Source: Lentimicrobium sp. (lineage in GTDB: Bacteria; Bacteroidota; Bacteroidia; Bacteroidales; Lentimicrobiaceae). Taken from it: DNA of 10,348 nt. This document shows, piece after piece, positions 797 to 10,346 of the stretch. The notes beneath the pieces were generated by a model. The model did not search any database. It was not told where the DNA came from and was given only the letters and a program-made list of their open reading frames with translations. Position 1 is the first letter of the stretch. The number at the start of each line of letters is the position of its first letter. Position numbers and translations under genes: made by a program. Location of the stretch: NCBI GenBank assembly GCA_013336205.1, contig JAAXUD010000052.1, positions 1 through 10,348 of the forward strand, read 5' to 3'.

Positions 797-913
797 AGTG
801 CGTTTTTGGGGAATGGAGAAGTTGCGAAAGCTTCCGACAAATTTCCGTGGAGGAGGTAAGCGGAATACTGGTATTCTTAATTGGTGCGAACTTCCAGACT
901 GGCTTGATGTTTC

Positions 914-1024
914 GCCGCTTTGTGAAGGTGGGGATTTTCAGATTTAAAGTTAATAAAAAGACAAAACTTAAATACAGCACTTCACTTTCATCGAAGAAAG
1001 AAATCCCCGCTTTTGCAAAACGGC
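914..1024. repeat. Long-loop imperfect inverted repeat, element 1 (cassette-boundary candidate)
   Basis: Arm 914-937 (starts GCCGCTTTGTG, ends GGGGATTT) is the imperfect inverse of arm 1001-1024 (starts AAATCCCC, ends AAAACGGC). Nineteen of 24 positions pair as Watson-Crick, and all five differences are transitions. Four of the five become G-T wobbles if the plus strand folds, only one if the minus strand does, so the strand opposite to the neighbouring genes folds better. The loop is 63 nt. The right arm lies 22 bp past the stop of the propeller gene. Element 2 at 2188-2301 has the same design and shares sequence (AAG-TGG-GATTT on the left, ATCGAAGA on the right). There is no T-tract next to the stem, so it does not look like an ordinary terminator. 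Confidence 0.6.
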
Positions 1025-1046
1025 TGTTAGTACATGCCTTTCTCCC

Positions 1047-2135
1047 TTAAGGTTTGAATCTCTCAAATGTTTCTCCATTGAACTTAAATGCTCCGTTTTC
1101 AGGTGTGCCAAGCCATAGGTCGCCTTGGTTGTCTTTATACATTGAGACTAAATTAACCTCTGTCGAACCGTCTTTAACTATATAATTTGTGATGTTTTTT
1201 CCGTCATATTTATATACTCCCTTATCCCAGGTTGTCAACCAGATATTTCCGTTCTTGTCTTCTACAATGTATGAATAGTAGACGTATTCATCTCCACCAA
1301 ATATTTTTGTATTTCCAATTCCGTTTTCTTTTTGATATTGAAGTCTGTCGCTTTTTGTCGTTTTGTCAAAGTCAAAAACATACCGATGCCAGGTGTTACA
1401 GAACCAAAAACTACCTTCCCTGTCCTCAAAAATTGAACGAATACCAAAAGTGCCACCAGATGGAGCAATTGTCAAATCTTCTTCATACATCCACTTGATG
1501 GATTGTCCGTCAAAACGACAAGCACCAAAAACAGAAGTGCCAAACCACATAGCACCTTTTCGGTCTTTATAGATGCAATAAACTTCATAAGGACTAAAAA
1601 ATGGATTGATCCCCTTTGCATAAATCTCATTGTGCAGGTAATGTTTTGGAAATTCTAACTGAAACAGGGTTTTTCCGTCAAAGCGATAAGGTCCGTTTTC
1701 TCCTCTTTTGCCCAAAATACTGAACCATAAATCATTGGGTTCCAATTTCCAGTCTTTACTTTTTACTGGTTGCAAAGTTGTAAATTGCTTTCCGTCAAAT
1801 TTGTTGATACCACTCAGCGTTGAGAAAAATATATTCCCAAATTCATCTTCTTGAATTTGTCTAATACTGTCATTGCTTAGTCCGTCTTTGGTGGTAAAAT
1901 TGACAATGGTTTTACCGTCATACCGATATACGCCTTCTCCATTGCTCCCAAACCAATAGTTGTTCTTTGTGTCTTGAAAAACATACCATAAATGTTTGCC
2001 AGGTTGATTAACAGAGTTGCCTGTGGTAATTGGTTTTATTAAAATTTCAGCATTCGTTGCATTGCTGTTAGTCTGTCCGTTGCAGGAAGTCAATATGGCA
2101 AATATGCTTAAAAAGCAAAGAAGGTTCATTTTCAT
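1047..2135 (-). CDS. Lipoprotein with seven two-component-regulator propeller repeats
   Basis: A 362-residue protein with a lipoprotein signal: a hydrophobic stretch LLCFLSIFAI, then lipobox LTSC with Cys at residue 18, followed by NGQTNSN. The rest is about seven repeats of the Reg_prop type, with core pattern I..D..G..WFGT..G...YDGK.F. They start near residues 50, 91, 137, 186, 232, 289 and 329, for example DTKNNYWFGSNGEGVYRYDG and DNQGDLWLGTPENGAFKFNG. Seven repeats would close one beta-propeller. In Bacteroidota these repeats usually form the periplasmic sensor half of hybrid histidine kinases; here there is no transmembrane helix, kinase or DNA-binding domain after them. It is a stand-alone, membrane-anchored propeller, probably ligand-binding; the ligand is unknown. 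A second ATG two codons in (2129) is an alternative start. The leader AAACAGACGACA before ATG resembles that of the next gene upstream. Confidence 0.85.
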   Translation of the reverse strand: MKMNLLCFLSIFAILTSCNGQTNSNATNAEILIKPITTGNSVNQPGKHLWYVFQDTKNNYWFGSNGEGVYRYDGKTIVNFTTKDGLSNDSIRQIQEDEFGNIFFSTLSGINKFDGKQFTTLQPVKSKDWKLEPNDLWFSILGKRGENGPYRFDGKTLFQLEFPKHYLHNEIYAKGINPFFSPYEVYCIYKDRKGAMWFGTSVFGACRFDGQSIKWMYEEDLTIAPSGGTFGIRSIFEDREGSFWFCNTWHRYVFDFDKTTKSDRLQYQKENGIGNTKIFGGDEYVYYSYIVEDKNGNIWLTTWDKGVYKYDGKNITNYIVKDGSTEVNLVSMYKDNQGDLWLGTPENGAFKFNGETFERFKP

Positions 2136-2147
2136 TGTCGTCTGTTT
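2136..2147 (-). promoter_or_regulatory. Shared leader motif before the propeller gene start
   Basis: On the minus strand the bases directly before ATG read AAACAGACGACA. The other island gene has AAACAGACA in the same place (3241-3249). There is no purine-rich Shine-Dalgarno sequence in either, as is common in Bacteroidota. The shared bases may be a translation-start context or a common cassette end; the sequence alone cannot decide. Confidence 0.35.
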
Positions 2148-2187
2148 AATATTTGTAGTGTCGTCATAGAGTTGCCACTATCGATTT

Positions 2188-2301
2188 GCAGCGTCAAGAA
2201 GTTGGCGATTTCAGAGACGAAAACTGTCAACCAGTATAAAATTAAACACGAAGCCAAAAGCTTTATTTAATCGAAGAGCCGCCAATTTATTGTAGGTGCT
2301 G
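2188..2301. repeat. Long-loop imperfect inverted repeat, element 2 (cassette-boundary candidate)
   Basis: The left arm 2188-2212 contains GCAGCGTC, then AAGAAG, then TTGGCGATTTC. The right arm 2273-2301 contains GAAGAGCCGCCAA, then TTTATTGTA, then GGTGCTG. Two boxes pair: outer CAGCGTC with GGTGCTG, and inner TTGGCG with CGCCAA, separated by an unequal internal loop. The top loop is 60 nt, close to the 63 nt of element 1. Three of the four transition differences in the paired boxes are G-T wobbles on the plus strand. It lies 30 bp after the stop of the 302-residue gene and 52 bp before the propeller gene, between the two. Confidence 0.5.
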
Positions 2302-2331
2302 TTTTGGGCTGTCTTTCTTTTCTGTCCTTCT

Positions 2332-3240
2332 TTAAGCATAGTATTTCTTAGCAATGTTTTCTAATCGTTTCACTTCTTTGTTGTCGCCAAGTTTGTACTC
2401 TTTTAAAAAGTCAAAATAATTTTTCGTGTAGGTCGATACTTTAGGTTTGGTCAAAACTTCTTCAAGTTTTTTGTTGTCAGTTTGTTGAAAGTCGTAACCG
2501 TAATTGTTTAGAAAAATAATTGTTGTCAGATGAAGAAGATGAAGTCTATCCCATCTCATTCTATCCTCGTTTGGCGAAACTCCATCTATGTAGTGATATA
2601 TTGATTGAAGGTCATTTTGCAAATCTGGTATGTTGCTTTTGTAGTAAGCATATGATTTGGGCCCGTCTTTGTCCGAAATATAGTCTGGTAACAATTCAAA
2701 ATTGTTTCTAAAAAAGTGGTCAACTGCATAATCACCGTCAGCATCTTTACCTACAATGAAAGTCAAGTCGCACATTACGTCTGGGAAAAATTTCAAAAAC
2801 TTGATGAACTCTAAATCTTCTTTTGATGCAATAGTTGTATCCAGGTAAATCATTTCCCTTTTGATTTTTCCTACCCAAGCATAAAGGCAGAGAAGTTTAA
2901 AGACTGTTGAATGGAAATAGTAATGTTCTCTGCCGAAATCACCATTAATATTTATCCAATCACGGTGGTAATTACTTGATAAATTCCAAAAGCGATGATT
3001 AACGTCTTCGCACGCTGTCAGCAGATGCACTTTATATTTTGCGATTGCTTCTTTTATCTTTTTCTGTTGTTCAAATTTATGTTCCGTTTCCAGGTTGCGT
3101 TGAAGTAGTTTATTCTCGAAGTAATTTTTCAGCCAATTGGTAAGAAGAAATGTCAGAACTGAAACACAAATACTTATCAACGCAACTTGATAAGCGTTTA
3201 AAGTATAACTTTCAATTATCGTTTTTACTTGTTCGTCCAT
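2332..3240 (-). CDS. Membrane-anchored protein of unknown function, one N-terminal TM helix
   Basis: A 302-residue protein that I cannot name. Residues 16-36 form one transmembrane helix (YQVALISICVSVLTFLLT is its core), followed by a charged, probably coiled-coil stretch (about 41-66, ENKLLQRNLETEHKFEQQKK) and a mostly helical soluble part. Residues 69-135 follow a pattern I associate from memory with an unnamed bacterial family: Y-x-x-x-LL-x-A, then N-x-R-x-W-N-L, then GREHYYFHST, then YAWVGKIKREMIYLD. The positive K37/K45 side suggests the N-terminus is outside and the bulk cytoplasmic, but this is weak. No catalytic motif is evident. The gene ends with TAA at 2332-2334 and is followed by element 2. 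No good Bacteroidota promoter was found upstream, consistent with a gene depending on outside transcription. Confidence 0.8.
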   Translation of the reverse strand: MDEQVKTIIESYTLNAYQVALISICVSVLTFLLTNWLKNYFENKLLQRNLETEHKFEQQKKIKEAIAKYKVHLLTACEDVNHRFWNLSSNYHRDWININGDFGREHYYFHSTVFKLLCLYAWVGKIKREMIYLDTTIASKEDLEFIKFLKFFPDVMCDLTFIVGKDADGDYAVDHFFRNNFELLPDYISDKDGPKSYAYYKSNIPDLQNDLQSIYHYIDGVSPNEDRMRWDRLHLLHLTTIIFLNNYGYDFQQTDNKKLEEVLTKPKVSTYTKNYFDFLKEYKLGDNKEVKRLENIAKKYYA

Positions 3241-3249
3241 TGTCTGTTT
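3241..3249 (-). promoter_or_regulatory. Shared leader motif before the 302-residue gene start
   Basis: On the minus strand the bases just before ATG are AAACAGACA, within a longer run CAGCTAACAAAAAAACAGACA. This repeats the AAACAGAC core of the propeller gene leader. Function is unknown: a start context or a cassette-end signature. Confidence 0.3.
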
Positions 3250-3453
3250 TTTTGTTAGCTGTGTAGTTGTTTAAGTTTGCCCATAACTAAAAGATATCAT
3301 CACAAGCTTACCCCTTTTTAATACAATGAAAACGAACTTTTACCCTTCACTATATGGTTAAATAATTGATCAGGATATGTTTTCAACTAGTTAAAGTAAT
3401 TGAATCAATATTGAAGTATTCAATTTTGAACAAGTAAAATGTATAAAAGTTAA

Positions 3454-5408: not shown

Positions 5409-5449
5409 AGCTCACCAACCAAAGCTCACCAACCATCGCTCAGCTCACC
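5409..5449. repeat. AGCTCACC direct repeats
   Basis: AGCTCACCAACC occurs at 5409-5420 and 5423-5434, and its first eight bases again at 5442-5449. Spacing is 14 then 19 bp. This sits between the TTCGRC repeats and the 7-bp array. Confidence 0.6.
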
Positions 5450-5450
5450 G

Positions 5451-5540
5451 CTTTAGACTTTAGACTTTTTACTTTAGACTTTTTACTTTAAGCTTTGAGC
5501 TTTTACTTTTTACTTTAGACTTTTTACTTTAAGCTTGAAC
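5451..5540. repeat. 7-bp tandem array (CTTTAGA/CTTTTTA) abutting a stop codon
   Basis: Thirteen units read on the plus strand: CTTTAGA twice, then CTTTTTA, CTTTAGA, CTTTTTA, CTTTAAG, CTTTGAG, a 6-bp CTTTTA, CTTTTTA, CTTTAGA, CTTTTTA, CTTTAAG and CTTGAAC. The array ends at the base directly next to the stop codon of the big propeller gene (TAG at 5543-5541), so it would form the beginning of that gene's 3' untranslated region. The first four bases are fixed in all but the last unit; the last three vary. Confidence 0.8.
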
Positions 5541-8500
5541 CTACTTCCACTCCGGCAACCTCCCCGGTGTATAAGGCACGCCAGCCTTCTCCATCTCAGC
5601 TTCAATGGCAGGTAATTCAACCTCACTGATTTGCTTTAGCTGTGTATAAAGAGGCGGGAATTCGTCGCGGATAATCTCAAAGCTGCGGCGGTGCGTGCTG
5701 GTTGGGGCCGAAGTGCTGCCATAGAATGCGTAGATAATATTACCAAGCCTTTCATTGATTGAAACCTGGGCCGGAGGATTTTCCTCGCGGCTGGCCTTTG
5801 GTTCCTTGCCATTGAATGCCAGCAGAATATCATCTACTTTCAACGAAAGCGCGTAAATTTTACCGGTAAGTTCAGGCGAAGCAGCCGGTGTCTGGTGAAC
5901 CGCCTGCAACATTGTTGTCAGTTTCTCTGAAAGCTCGCCGGCGAAATTATCAGTGCCCTGAACCTGACGGATCAATTGGGCAACCTGCTGCTGGAATGCA
6001 ACCAGCGCCGCGCGATCCGGAGCCGGAAGTGTAGTGTTGTTCAATACCACTGCATTAAACGGTGCTGGTCCGGCAAGGTTTTTTGTTTCACCACCGGCAA
6101 CAATTTCCATGGCTACATTGTACTTTCCTGGCATAGCAAAGAGACCTGAATTGCCTTCTTTGAACGGATCAAACTTCTCACTACGGTTACTAACAGGAGA
6201 AGTAGCGGCATAGCGCAGATCCCAGTTGGTTCGGTTCAGCCCGGCTGAAGGTTTACTGTATAACCTACGGACAACACTGCCGGCCTCATCGGTGATGGTG
6301 AAAACCAGGTAGGGTGGAATCTCATTTTCTTCGGCACGTAATTCTGCCTCGGTGGGTTGTGGAATACGTTCACTCTTTTTAAACAATTCCTTTTCTTTCT
6401 CCTTACGTTGTTCGCGAAGGGTTTTAGGAACTTCTTTCAGCCACCATGAAAAAGTAGCGCCAAACTCAGGGTTTTTGGCCGCATAATAGGAAGAACCCTG
6501 TCCGTATTTTCCACCGGTCTCAATAAACATAAGGGCGTCTTTGATATCGAAGATGTGCGCGGGGCTATCCATCACTGTTTTGTTGATGGTACGCAGGGGC
6601 GAATAATTCTCCAGGATATAGAAACCACGGCCAAAAGTAGCAAGTACCAGGTCATTTTCACGCTGCTGAATAACGATGTCTCTGATGGAAATGGTTGGTA
6701 ATCCGTTTTTTAATTGTGTCCACTGACCACCGCCATCGAGGCTGAAAAACAGGCCAAATTCAGTGCCCACAAATAAAAGATCAGGATTAACATGATCCTG
6801 AACAATGCTGTGAACGGAGCCGTTTTCAGGAAGATTGGAGGCAATGGAAACCCAGCTCTTGCCTTTGTCGGTGCTCTTGAGCAGGTAAGGCTTAAAATCG
6901 TCGCGCTTGGTATTGTCAAAGGCAGCAAAGACCACCTGCTCATCAAATCCGGAAGCCAGCACATCCGCTACGAAGGTAAACTCCGGTACACCGGGAAAAC
7001 TACCGGCCTTGCGCCATGTTTTTGCATCCTCGCTTATTTGAATCAGGCCATCATCGGTACCGGCATAAAGCAAATTCTCTTTTACCGGTGATTCGTCAAG
7101 TGACACAATAAGACCCCACAAAGAGGTGGAAACATCCTTCACTACGGCGTCAATACTCCAGTATTTGCCCATTACCGGCCAGGTGTTGCGGTCGGTTCCG
7201 GTACTCAGATCCTCAGAAATCACCTGCCAGGTGTTGCCCCGGTCGTCGCTGCGGAATACTTTGTTGGCTGCGGTATAAAGCCTGGTGGGCGCATGTTTGC
7301 TGATAAACAACGGCGTATCCCAGTACCACTTGAAGGTTTCTTCGCCTTTGCGTGGCTCAGGCCTGATGTCGATGGCTTCACCGCTCTTGCGGTCGTAACG
7401 TACCATATTCCCATACTGGGCTTCGGCATATACAATATTCGGATCGGTTGGGTCAACGGCTGTCCAGAACCCATCGCCGCCATTGGTTACAAACCATTCA
7501 TCATTTACCACACCATATTCGCTGGTATTACGCGAAGGGCCGCCCATACTGTTGTTGTCCTGGGTACCACCATATACATAATAAAACGGGAGGCTGTTGT
7601 CAACATTTACCCTGTAAAACTGGGTAACAGGCAGGTTGTTCTTGAAGAGGAAATTTTGACCGCCATCCCACGATTCATAAATACCTCCATCGCTACCAAT
7701 TAAAAAGTGTGCAGTGTTAGCCGGATCAATCCACATTGCATGGTCATCAACATGGCGGAATTTATTGCCTACATTTTGCCAGGTTTTGCCCCCATCTTTG
7801 GTAAACTGTGAAAATGTCTCCACCGAGTAAACCTTGTCCACATCCTTAGGATCACAGTAAATTTCATTGTAATACTGACCCTGAGCCGTATGTCCGCTCA
7901 TTTTATTCCAGGAAGCGCCACGATCGGTCGTGCGGAAAAACCCACCGGACTCGCCGGCAGCTTCTACAATTGCATATACGTAATCAGGATTTACGGGTGA
8001 GATGGCAATACCTATGCCCCCCACATCGCCCGAAGGAAGTCCGGAAGAGAGTTTTTCCCAGTTGGCCCCGGCATCGGTCGATTTCCAGATACCTGATTCG
8101 GGCCCGCCGCCAATCTTGGTGAAAGCATGCCTGCGGCGTTGTTCGGAAGTGGCATATAAAACATCCGGATTCCGGGGATCAAGGATCACATTGTTCACCC
8201 CTGTGTTTTCACTTACATTCAGTACCTTATTCCAGTTCTTGCCCCCATCGGTCGTTTTATAAAGACCACGTTCTTCGCCCGGGCCCCAGGCCGATCCTTC
8301 GGCTGCAACGTAAACCACGTTGGTGTTGCGTGGGTCAATGGCAATCATGCCTATCTGGCGGGAGTTTTTAAGGCCCATATTTTTCCAGCTCTTGCCGCCA
8401 TCCATTGATTTGTAAACTCCATCGCCATAGCCAAGAGCCCTTTGATGGTTGTTTTCGCCAGTTCCTGTCCAGATTACATTCGGGTTTTCAGGATCCAAAG

Positions 8501-10002: not shown

Positions 10003-10013
10003 GGGCCCCGGAG

Positions 10014-10141
10014 TTACAGAATTACAGGGTTACAGGGTTAAAGGGTTTCAGAGTTACAGAATTACAGGGTTTCAGAGTTACAGAATTTCAGAATTACATA
10101 ATTACAGGGTTACAGGGTTGCAGAATTACATAATTACAGGG
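10014..10141. repeat. 8-bp tandem array TTACAGRR, 16 units without indels
   Basis: Sixteen consecutive octamers fill 128 bp exactly. The consensus is TTACAG followed by two purines. The last two positions are AA in seven units, GG in seven and AG in two, never GA. Other changes are few: TTTCAG in three units, TTACAT in two, TTAAAG and TTGCAG once each. It begins 12 bp after the stop codon of the T9SS gene. The period is not a multiple of three, and the reading frame through it is only a shadow. Confidence 0.9.
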
Positions 10142-10146
10142 TTGGG

Positions 10147-10217
10147 GTGGCTGAGTGTTTTGCGAAATAATCGTGTTTGATGACGTAATTTAGTTTCGCA
10201 AAATGTATCGAAGCCAC
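10147..10217. repeat. Two-tier palindromic block between octamer arrays
   Basis: Inner arms TTTTGCGAAA (10158-10167) and TTTCGCAAAA (10194-10203) are perfect inverse copies around a 26-nt loop; TAA and TTA can extend them with a bulge. Outer arms GTGGCT (10147-10152) and AGCCAC (10212-10217) also pair, past an unequal internal loop of 5 and 8 nt. The octamer array stops just before it and resumes at its right end, so the block looks inserted into the array. Confidence 0.55.
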
Positions 10218-10282
10218 AGGGTTACAGAGTTACAGAGTTACAGAATTTCAGAATTACAGGGTTTCAGAATTCAGTTTCAGAG
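10214..10282. repeat. 8-bp tandem array, second block
   Basis: After a first degenerate unit CCACAGGG come TTACAGAG twice, TTACAGAA, TTTCAGAA, TTACAGGG, TTTCAGAA, a 5-bp partial TTCAG and TTTCAGAG. It is the same family as the array at 10014-10141, in the same direction and separated by the palindromic block. Confidence 0.85.
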
Positions 10283-10346
10283 ATCCCGTATAATCAGACC
10301 AGAAGCCCGCATCAGAAAATAAGATACGGTCAAACTGCTGTAGATC
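10254..10346 (-). CDS. Possible 3' end of a minus-strand gene entering from the right
   Basis: On the minus strand one frame is open from the window edge for 30 codons, reading DLQQFDRILFSDAGFWSDYT and on to SETL, and ends in a TAA made by a repeat unit at 10256-10254. A second frame is also open, to a TGA at 10278-10276, so chance is a real possibility. I recognise no family. If real, its last codons run into the octamer array. Confidence 0.2.
   Translation of the reverse strand, partial: DLQQFDRILFSDAGFWSDYTGSLKLNSETL

What the first reader, a model, noticed from the sequence alone, without database searches (positions are those of the whole stretch)
914..3290. Cassette-like array: related long-loop hairpin elements after each of two unrelated genes
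Seen: gene, element, gene, element in one direction, where the two elements (914-1024 and 2188-2301) share left-arm and right-arm sequence, similar 60-63 nt loops and lie 22 and 30 bp after a stop codon. Both genes also share AAACAGAC before ATG, and are AT-richer than their surroundings. Inference: this resembles an integron cassette array, or a similar unnamed gene-shuffling system of Bacteroidota, carrying an orphan sensor-like lipoprotein and an unknown membrane protein. No recombinase is in view and canonical core sites are missing, so a new type of recombination site would be needed.
Basis: partly seen in the sequence, partly recalled or inferred. Interest (0 to 1): 0.72.

Follow-up and report, generated by a model that had tools for sequence, protein, structure and literature searches.

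The report
Integron-like gene cassettes of Bacteroidota
The two hairpins look like recombination sites at the ends of two gene cassettes, part of a widespread integron-like gene-swapping system of Bacteroidota whose likely enzyme lacks the hallmark insertion of known integron integrases.

Summary
Both elements (minus strand, 1031-899 and 2305-2173) match a model built only from other genomes (E 3e-22 and 1e-9). They belong to a ~130-nt hairpin family (AAC-A-stem-60 nt-stem-AAAMC-GTTR) found in at least 125 of 296 sampled Bacteroidota genomes. In 33 array stretches, chosen for their sites or recombinase, every site of a stretch points one way; 125 of 138 follow a same-strand stop codon, median 19 nt. 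Stems covary around a constant A/C mismatch. Eight of nine shared stretches inspected begin at the site's GTT; four of seven downstream ends lie there. At array heads lies a XerA-like tyrosine recombinase in cassette orientation: 11 of 14 array genomes, none found there in 3. It lacks the integron-integrase insertion and is followed by an attI-like motif. The window is a two-cassette cluster without a recombinase in view; no empty site was found. Similar sites follow tet(X), estT and aadS on plasmids. Recombination was not tested here; a 2026 Riemerella paper reports fitting behaviour.

The parts
3279..3287 (-). GTTATGGGC: inferred left boundary (R'-like box) of cassette 1
   Evidence: Sequence; 129 of 137 sites elsewhere are followed by one of the eight commonest GTT starts, GTTAT in 35. 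No site found upstream of it.
2332..3240 (-). cassette 1 gene: 302-aa protein with a hydrophobic N-terminal segment (read from the sequence), no Pfam or PADLOC family
   Evidence: 103 homologues, two named 'Phage abortive infection protein' by their source; at E<=1e-20 in 1 of 395 phylum genomes, its own
2173..2305 (-). site E2, attC-like site ending cassette 1 (reader: 2188-2301); R' box degenerate (GATA)
   Evidence: 44.0 bits, E 1.1e-9 with model R2 that excludes it; 88.9 bits with R1 that includes it
1047..2135 (-). cassette 2 gene: 362-aa lipoprotein-like protein with Reg_prop propeller repeats
   Evidence: PF07494 E 5.6e-24
899..1031 (-). site E1, attC-like site ending cassette 2 (reader: 914-1024); terminal GTTR lost
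   Evidence: 93.4 bits, E 2.7e-22 with model R2 that excludes it; 113 bits with R1 that includes it

Best explanation
The window holds two gene cassettes, each a gene plus a ~130-nt hairpin site at its 3' end, of an integron-like system of Bacteroidota. Shown by comparison: sites of one family end cassettes in one-way arrays; cassettes are shared between genomes with ends mostly at the GTT of the sites; arrays are often headed by a XerA-like tyrosine recombinase without the IntI insertion, followed by a conserved attI-like motif. Inferred: the recombinase recognises the site folded as a single-strand hairpin by its shape and its fixed unpaired bases, joins the cassette at GTT to the attI-like site or to another site, and replication completes the product. 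The window's pair is an orphan cluster (no recombinase on its contig), probably moved in trans or left behind.
For: Family: 60 hits of one half-site pattern (up to 1 mismatch) against 5 for the reversed control in 296 genomes; at least 125 of 296 genomes at E<=0.01, at most 11 candidates scored per genome. Window under a model blind to it: E 2.7e-22 and 1.1e-9. Structure: 24 of 27 pairs with changes on both sides, covariation score 0.525 against 0.138 shuffled (an alignment fitted to the model), constant A/C mismatch in 143 of 150. Arrays: 142 sites in 33 of 35 stretches searched, one orientation per stretch in 33 of 33; same-strand stop upstream in 125 of 138, median 19 nt (stretches were picked for their sites or a recombinase, and 4 of 142 sites had no gene end within 400 nt). 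Mobility: of 12 long matches between arrays of different genomes, 3 cover recombinase genes; of the other 9, 8 begin at GTT, e.g. 99.3% over 1.33 kb between two families, and two of the eight involve the window's own assembly and a congener. Recombinase: at the array head in cassette orientation in 11 of 14 array genomes, one of them a fragment; in 80 loci fetched by recombinase alone 31 of 34 sites are downstream and same-strand, in 16 of the 80 loci; 34 of 34 genomes with E<=1e-120 have sites, against 91 of 262 others; at E<=1e-60 it is 73 of 95 against 52 of 201. attI-like motif 18 of 21 core-clade loci, 0 of 24 controls. Same genus as the window: sites in 17 of 19 genomes, recombinase relatives in 12 of 19 (own included), and in G296 19 same-strand sites over ~47 kb with the enzyme at their head. 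Published experiment: in Riemerella, 27 bp + gene + 140 bp attC-like 3' UTR inserted as a unit without flanking homology (PMC13148043, section 11).
Against: No recombination assay was possible. The window's sites are worn (E1 lacks GTTR), no empty site was found, and its 302-aa gene was found in none of 394 other genomes, so movement of these two cassettes themselves is inferred. Three of seven inspected downstream ends (G186/G296 and both G244/G098 matches) and one of nine starts (G244/G098, second match) are not at GTT. Of the 30 genomes with 7 or more sites, 10 have no recombinase match at E<=1e-100 and 7 none at E<=1e-60; 22 of 95 genomes with a match at E<=1e-60 had no site. Not all sites lie in arrays (e.g. 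G132, far apart and on both strands). The recombinases with arrays are not one clade. The attI-like motif was chosen on the sequences in which it was then counted, and is found in only 2 of 14 non-core loci. The own assembly holds only 286- and 305-aa relatives beside IS91-type transposases, apart from Xer-like enzymes and a weak fragment.
Confidence: 0.85

Rival explanations
1. The cassettes are moved by an IS91-type rolling-circle (HUH) transposon that carries a tyrosine recombinase; the hairpin is a transposon end.
For: In the own genome two 286/305-aa recombinases are followed by IS91-type transposase ORFs and each has a site just upstream on the opposite strand; a Myroides plasmid also carries IS91 plus an integrase near sites.
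Against: A search with the two own transposases found no such ORF beside the divergent recombinases L232-L234 nor in the 20 array stretches L085-L104; distant relatives could be missed. Sites end cassettes one by one in one-way arrays, which one-ended transposition does not predict.
Confidence: 0.08
2. The hairpins are passive repeats and cassettes move by homologous recombination between them.
For: Sites are repeated and can be about 75% alike; three of seven inspected downstream ends are not at GTT.
Against: In 8 of 9 shared stretches identity starts at GTT while the sequence before it, mostly a site, differs right up to it; crossovers in a 130-bp repeat should carry part of the site along. 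A site with an unrelated stem has the same ends (case 1).
Confidence: 0.04
3. They are transcription terminators, RNA elements or MITE-like repeats after genes.
For: Hairpins a median of 19 nt after stop codons; pairing kept by compensating changes also fits RNA.
Against: No Rfam family beyond one weak unrelated hit in the window and none in L086; long conserved loop; site ends coincide with breakpoints; association with a recombinase.
Confidence: 0.02
4. They are ordinary attC sites worked by canonical IntI.
For: Same logic and AAC/GTT ends; one of the array genomes (G006) also has a canonical IntI (429 bits).
Against: Only 1 of 14 array genomes has a TIGR02249 hit over the cut-off, on a contig stretch with no site found; the array recombinases measured lack the ~40-aa insertion.
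Confidence: 0.04

Closest known systems
Chromosomal integrons (IntI / attI / attC cassette arrays)
   Same: One-way arrays of unrelated genes each ended by a structured site, AAC...GTT ends, tyrosine recombinase and attI-like motif at the head, clusters without a recombinase, resistance and defence cargo
   Different: Recombinase lacks the IntI insertion (64-69 residues between KGxKDR and HxLRHS in the site-linked enzymes that could be measured, 106 in three IntI), most have an N-terminal extension and are transcribed toward the cassettes; sites of nearly constant ~130 nt
XerA recombinases (NCBIfam NF040815; PDB 5hxy, 4a8e)
   Same: Best sequence matches of L087 in the PDB (E 2.9e-40 and 9.5e-40); 5 of 8 site-linked array enzymes scanned pass the NF040815 cut-off; top Foldseek hits
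   Different: Added N-terminal domain; cassette arrays instead of a dif site
attC-like 3' UTR of aph(3')-IVb, Riemerella anatipestifer (PMC13148043, section 11 read)
   Same: 140-bp attC-like segment after the gene, insertion as a unit without flanking homology
   Different: The section describes one gene and names no recombinase, site family or arrays; its sequence was not compared here
IS91-type elements with a tyrosine recombinase
   Same: Related recombinase with a site beside it in the own genome
   Different: No IS91-type ORF found beside the array-head recombinases searched

Membership tests
Integron | IntI-type integrase with the additional domain (insertion in the catalytic domain) | tested here: not met
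   TIGR02249 195-217 bits, cut-off 265, in 8 of 8 array enzymes scanned; motif distance 64-69 aa against 106 in three enzymes over that cut-off (L091 and L153 could not be measured); alignment A4
Integron | Array of cassettes, one orientation, each ended by a recombination site | tested here: met
   33 of 33 site-bearing stretches, 142 sites; 125 of 138 after a same-strand stop; stretches were selected
Integron | Sites fold into imperfect hairpins with conserved unpaired features | tested here: met
   (mean fold -20.6 top, -21.4 bottom for 140 sites; -12.4 for 60 shuffled)
Integron | R boxes RYYYAAC / GTTRRRY (consensus recalled) | tested here: inconclusive
   AAC and GTTR near-invariant, outer letters not
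Integron | attI site beside the integrase gene | tested here: inconclusive
   ATAAACGAGTTAGC with up to 3 mismatches: 18 of 21 core, 2 of 14 non-core, 0 of 24 controls; motif chosen on the core set; function untested
Integron | Integrase-driven cassette excision and insertion | not testable with these tools
   Only breakpoints seen
IS91 family element | HUH transposase in the unit | tested here: not met
   Found beside the two own-genome recombinases only, among the loci searched with those two transposases; a Myroides plasmid has one by annotation

The most novel reading that the evidence does not exclude
Bacteroidota have their own integron-like cassette system, built on XerA-like recombinases (with a HARP-like N-terminal domain in part of them) instead of IntI, that reads folded hairpin sites, leaves its sites in about two fifths of the genomes sampled, and is the native source of cassettes such as tet(X), estT and aadS that later spread on plasmids.
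Probability: 0.6. Interest if true: 0.93.

Novelty: new variant of a known kind. Interest (0 to 1): 0.86.

Why it matters
Reviews list Bacteroidota among phyla with integrons (PMC8618304, PMC9668308, passages), but the IntI-based survey whose passages I saw found a complete one only in Salinibacter among Bacteroidetes (PMC9024848). If this system works as inferred, a major phylum has a widespread route of gene exchange that IntI-based searches miss, integron-like recombination does not need the IntI insertion described as essential though not fully conserved (PMC8138268, passages), and resistance genes followed by such sites on plasmids gain an explanation for their origin. It makes testable what lets a recombinase use a folded single strand.

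Tried and rejected
Direct BLAST of E1: two weak short hits elsewhere in the own genome, none on plasmids; a canonical site of another genome did find 8 plasmids. Rfam: one weak unrelated hit in the window, none in L086. Empty site: the GH53 gene was found in six congeners, but neither cassette gene nor the window's other flank matched in the 19-20 kb fetched, so the junction could not be tested. Cassette context of the 302-aa gene elsewhere: no match in 394 other genomes. PADLOC: no family for either window gene. Recombinase tree: 35 site-linked head-type enzymes, 21 of them a core clade (100/100), the rest in several groups; three IntI a clade apart (100/100); deep branches unresolved, so one origin is neither shown nor excluded. 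AAACAGAC as a leader signal: rejected. Structure: model of the L150 recombinase, pLDDT 83.9, pTM 0.63; Foldseek top hits XerA-type and IntI4, TM-scores 0.4-0.6 to the query; the N-terminal domain could not be searched alone. Pfam and PADLOC were run on 100 of the 127 cassette-end genes. Literature: ten searches in an open-licence library; subscription papers and preprints were not seen.

Two enzymes used as IntI yardsticks were confirmed by profile.
Full report
What is in the window. On the minus strand lie a 302-aa gene (3240-2332), a hairpin (2305-2173), a 362-aa Reg_prop lipoprotein-like gene (2135-1047) and a second hairpin (1031-899), between a GH53 gene on the plus strand and unrelated minus-strand genes. 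The two genes have 34 and 37% GC, three neighbours 47-49%. The window is contig C320 of a 914-contig assembly, 89.75% complete, 5.23% contaminated.

Are the hairpins real? A half-site pattern from the left element (up to one mismatch) gave 60 hits in 42 of 296 Bacteroidota genomes against 5 for the reversed pattern. Reading the 29 loci fetched with it (L021-L049) showed full elements in other genomes: AAC, A, a stem of about ten pairs, a second stem, some 60 nt of partly conserved loop, the partner strands, AAAMC and GTTR. I kept 12 such elements from 11 loci; the other loci, among them plain coding-sequence matches, were left out. A model from the 12 alone finds E1 at 93.4 bits (E 2.7e-22) and E2 at 44.0 bits (E 1.1e-9). 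Model R1 (those 12 plus E1 and E2) finds at least 125 of 296 genomes at E<=0.01; at most 11 candidates were scored per genome, so counts are lower bounds.

Structure. In 150 aligned sites 85.6% of pair cells are standard, 24 of 27 pairs show changes on both sides, and the covariation score is 0.525 (shuffled 0.138; slid partners at most 0.083). That alignment was fitted to the model, but the 14-site MAFFT alignment agrees (0.264 against 0.078). Amid these changing pairs one position is A opposite C in 143 of 150. Both strands fold well; the bottom one is more stable in 90 of 140, the top in 47. attC sites use fixed unpaired bases in this way (recalled).

Arrays. I fetched 35 stretches from 14 genomes, chosen because one search showed several sites near each other or because one search showed a recombinase. 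After removing 9 opposite-strand shadows, 142 sites remain in 33 stretches; in each, all point the same way. Of 138 with a called gene end within 400 nt upstream, 125 have it on the same strand, median gap 19 nt; gene calls are mechanical. Among neighbours less than 6 kb apart the median spacing is 1.5 kb. The 127 genes ending at sites fall into 118 families, 111 of them single. Of 100 of these genes scanned, several match restriction or defence families (GmrSD, MvaI/BcnI, AlwI, AIPR and others), one MerB, one beta-lactamase. Some genomes have scattered sites instead (G132).

Mobility. One search lists 12 matches of 300 bp or more at 84% or more between array stretches of different genomes. 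Three cover recombinase genes and were set aside. I read the other nine base by base: G059/G023 (99.3% over 1.33 kb, different families), G186/G023 (87% over 3.6 kb), two between the window's own assembly (contigs C841, C813) and congener G305, G186/G296 (99.6% over 0.9 kb; G296 is a congener of the window's genome), L151/G296, G194/G016, and two for G244/G098. In eight of nine identity starts at GTT, while the sequence before it, in most cases a detected site, differs. Of seven downstream ends that could be read, four end at the next GTT (GTAAT in the C841 case); G186/G296 and both G244/G098 matches do not, the latter looking like a later rearrangement. The G059/G023 cassette has a site with a quite different stem but the same ends, which R1 did not find.

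Recombinase. At array heads lies a tyrosine recombinase transcribed toward the cassettes: in 11 of the 14 array genomes (a fragment in G192); in the other three (G269, G244, G126) none was found there. Eight further loci agree (L235, L240-L242, L244-L246, L249). Starting from the enzyme alone, 80 loci of named genomes were fetched; 31 of their 34 sites are downstream on the same strand, in 16 of 80 loci (Flavobacterium, Algoriphagus, Cyclobacterium, Algibacter, Winogradskyella, Zunongwangia and others; the L153 frame is broken); 3 are upstream on the other strand (L170, L175, L180). In 296 genomes all 34 with E<=1e-120 carry sites, against 91 of 262 others (Fisher 9e-15); at E<=1e-60 it is 73 of 95 against 52 of 201. 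The enzymes from which the profile was made are among them, and the thresholds were chosen afterwards. A second type, 273-306 aa without the N-terminal extension, is divergent from its sites in L232-L234 and in two own-genome units that also carry IS91-type transposases.

What the enzyme is. Five of eight array enzymes scanned pass the XerA-type model NF040815 (192-235 bits, cut-off 220) and all eight stay below the integron integrase cut-off (195-217 bits, cut-off 265). The stretch from KGxKDR to HxLRHS is 64-69 residues in the site-linked enzymes that could be measured, and 106 in three enzymes that pass the integron cut-off. PDB relatives of L087: XerA first, then IntI4. The first ~60 residues of the L150 enzyme are modelled as a compact bbabba domain. 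HARP domains bind DNA junctions (recalled): a lead for hairpin recognition, not a result. After the stop codon, 18 of 21 core-clade loci have ATAAACGAGTTAGC with up to 3 mismatches, non-core 2 of 14, controls 0 of 24; the motif was picked on the core set.

Window and genus. Sites occur in 17 of 19 genomes of the genus and recombinase relatives in 12 of 19, own included; G296 has 19 same-strand sites over ~47 kb with the enzyme at their head. The own assembly has six sites at E<=1 and, besides Xer-like enzymes and a weak fragment, only the IS91-linked recombinases. So the window reads as a small orphan cluster, its left boundary at GTTATGGGC (3287-3279) and its last site worn.

Wider reach. A canonical site matches 8 of 72,556 plasmid records. 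With the hairpin model, sites follow by 9-17 nt estT in Acinetobacter indicus (tet(X5) comes next), tet(X2) in Sphingobacterium faecium and Bacteroides thetaiotaomicron, and aadS in the latter, and lie near erm(F) and ere(D) in Myroides. A 2026 paper reports that in Riemerella aph(3')-IVb with 27 bp before and 140 bp after it inserted without flanking homology, likens the 140 bp to attC and leaves the mechanism open (PMC13148043, section 11). I found no account of the family, its arrays or its recombinase in the ten searches listed under tried and rejected.

Verdict. It works like an integron and is not one by the IntI criterion: a new variant of a known kind. What remains is a direct test of recombination.

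Noticed in passing
window 10013-10283: Tandem 8-nt repeats (ACAGGGTT / ACAGAATT type) after the last gene, broken once.
   Followed up: no
window 5439-5548: Period-14 A/T-rich repeats (TTTACTTTAGACTT) between genes.
   Followed up: no
L236 and L237 (own genome contigs C348, C452): Tyrosine recombinase overlapping an IS91-type transposase ORF, each with a site just upstream on the other strand; one site is only 78 nt.
   Followed up: partly
L297, L298, L299, L300 (plasmids): Sites of this family after or beside tet(X), estT, aadS, erm(F) and ere(D), once in an Acinetobacter.
   Followed up: partly
L091 8050-8300 and L240 11462-11712: In a shared cassette the site's stem arms differ while most of the loop is nearly identical.
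   Followed up: no
L092 9300-10930 and L244 6001-6408: A gene continuous in one genome is split in the other by ~1.4 kb whose ends resemble halves of a site.
   Followed up: no
L150-L191 recombinases, N-terminal part: N-terminal extension with weak HARP / DUF5710 matches, much longer in some (up to 718 aa).
   Followed up: partly
L145 11105-12130: A canonical IntI (TIGR02249 429.8 bits) in a Bacteroidota genome that also has the array-type enzyme.
   Followed up: no
window 2332-3240: Homologues of the 302-aa gene are patchy (103 proteins, one in Acinetobacter sp. Tol 5); two are named 'Phage abortive infection protein' by their source.
   Followed up: partly
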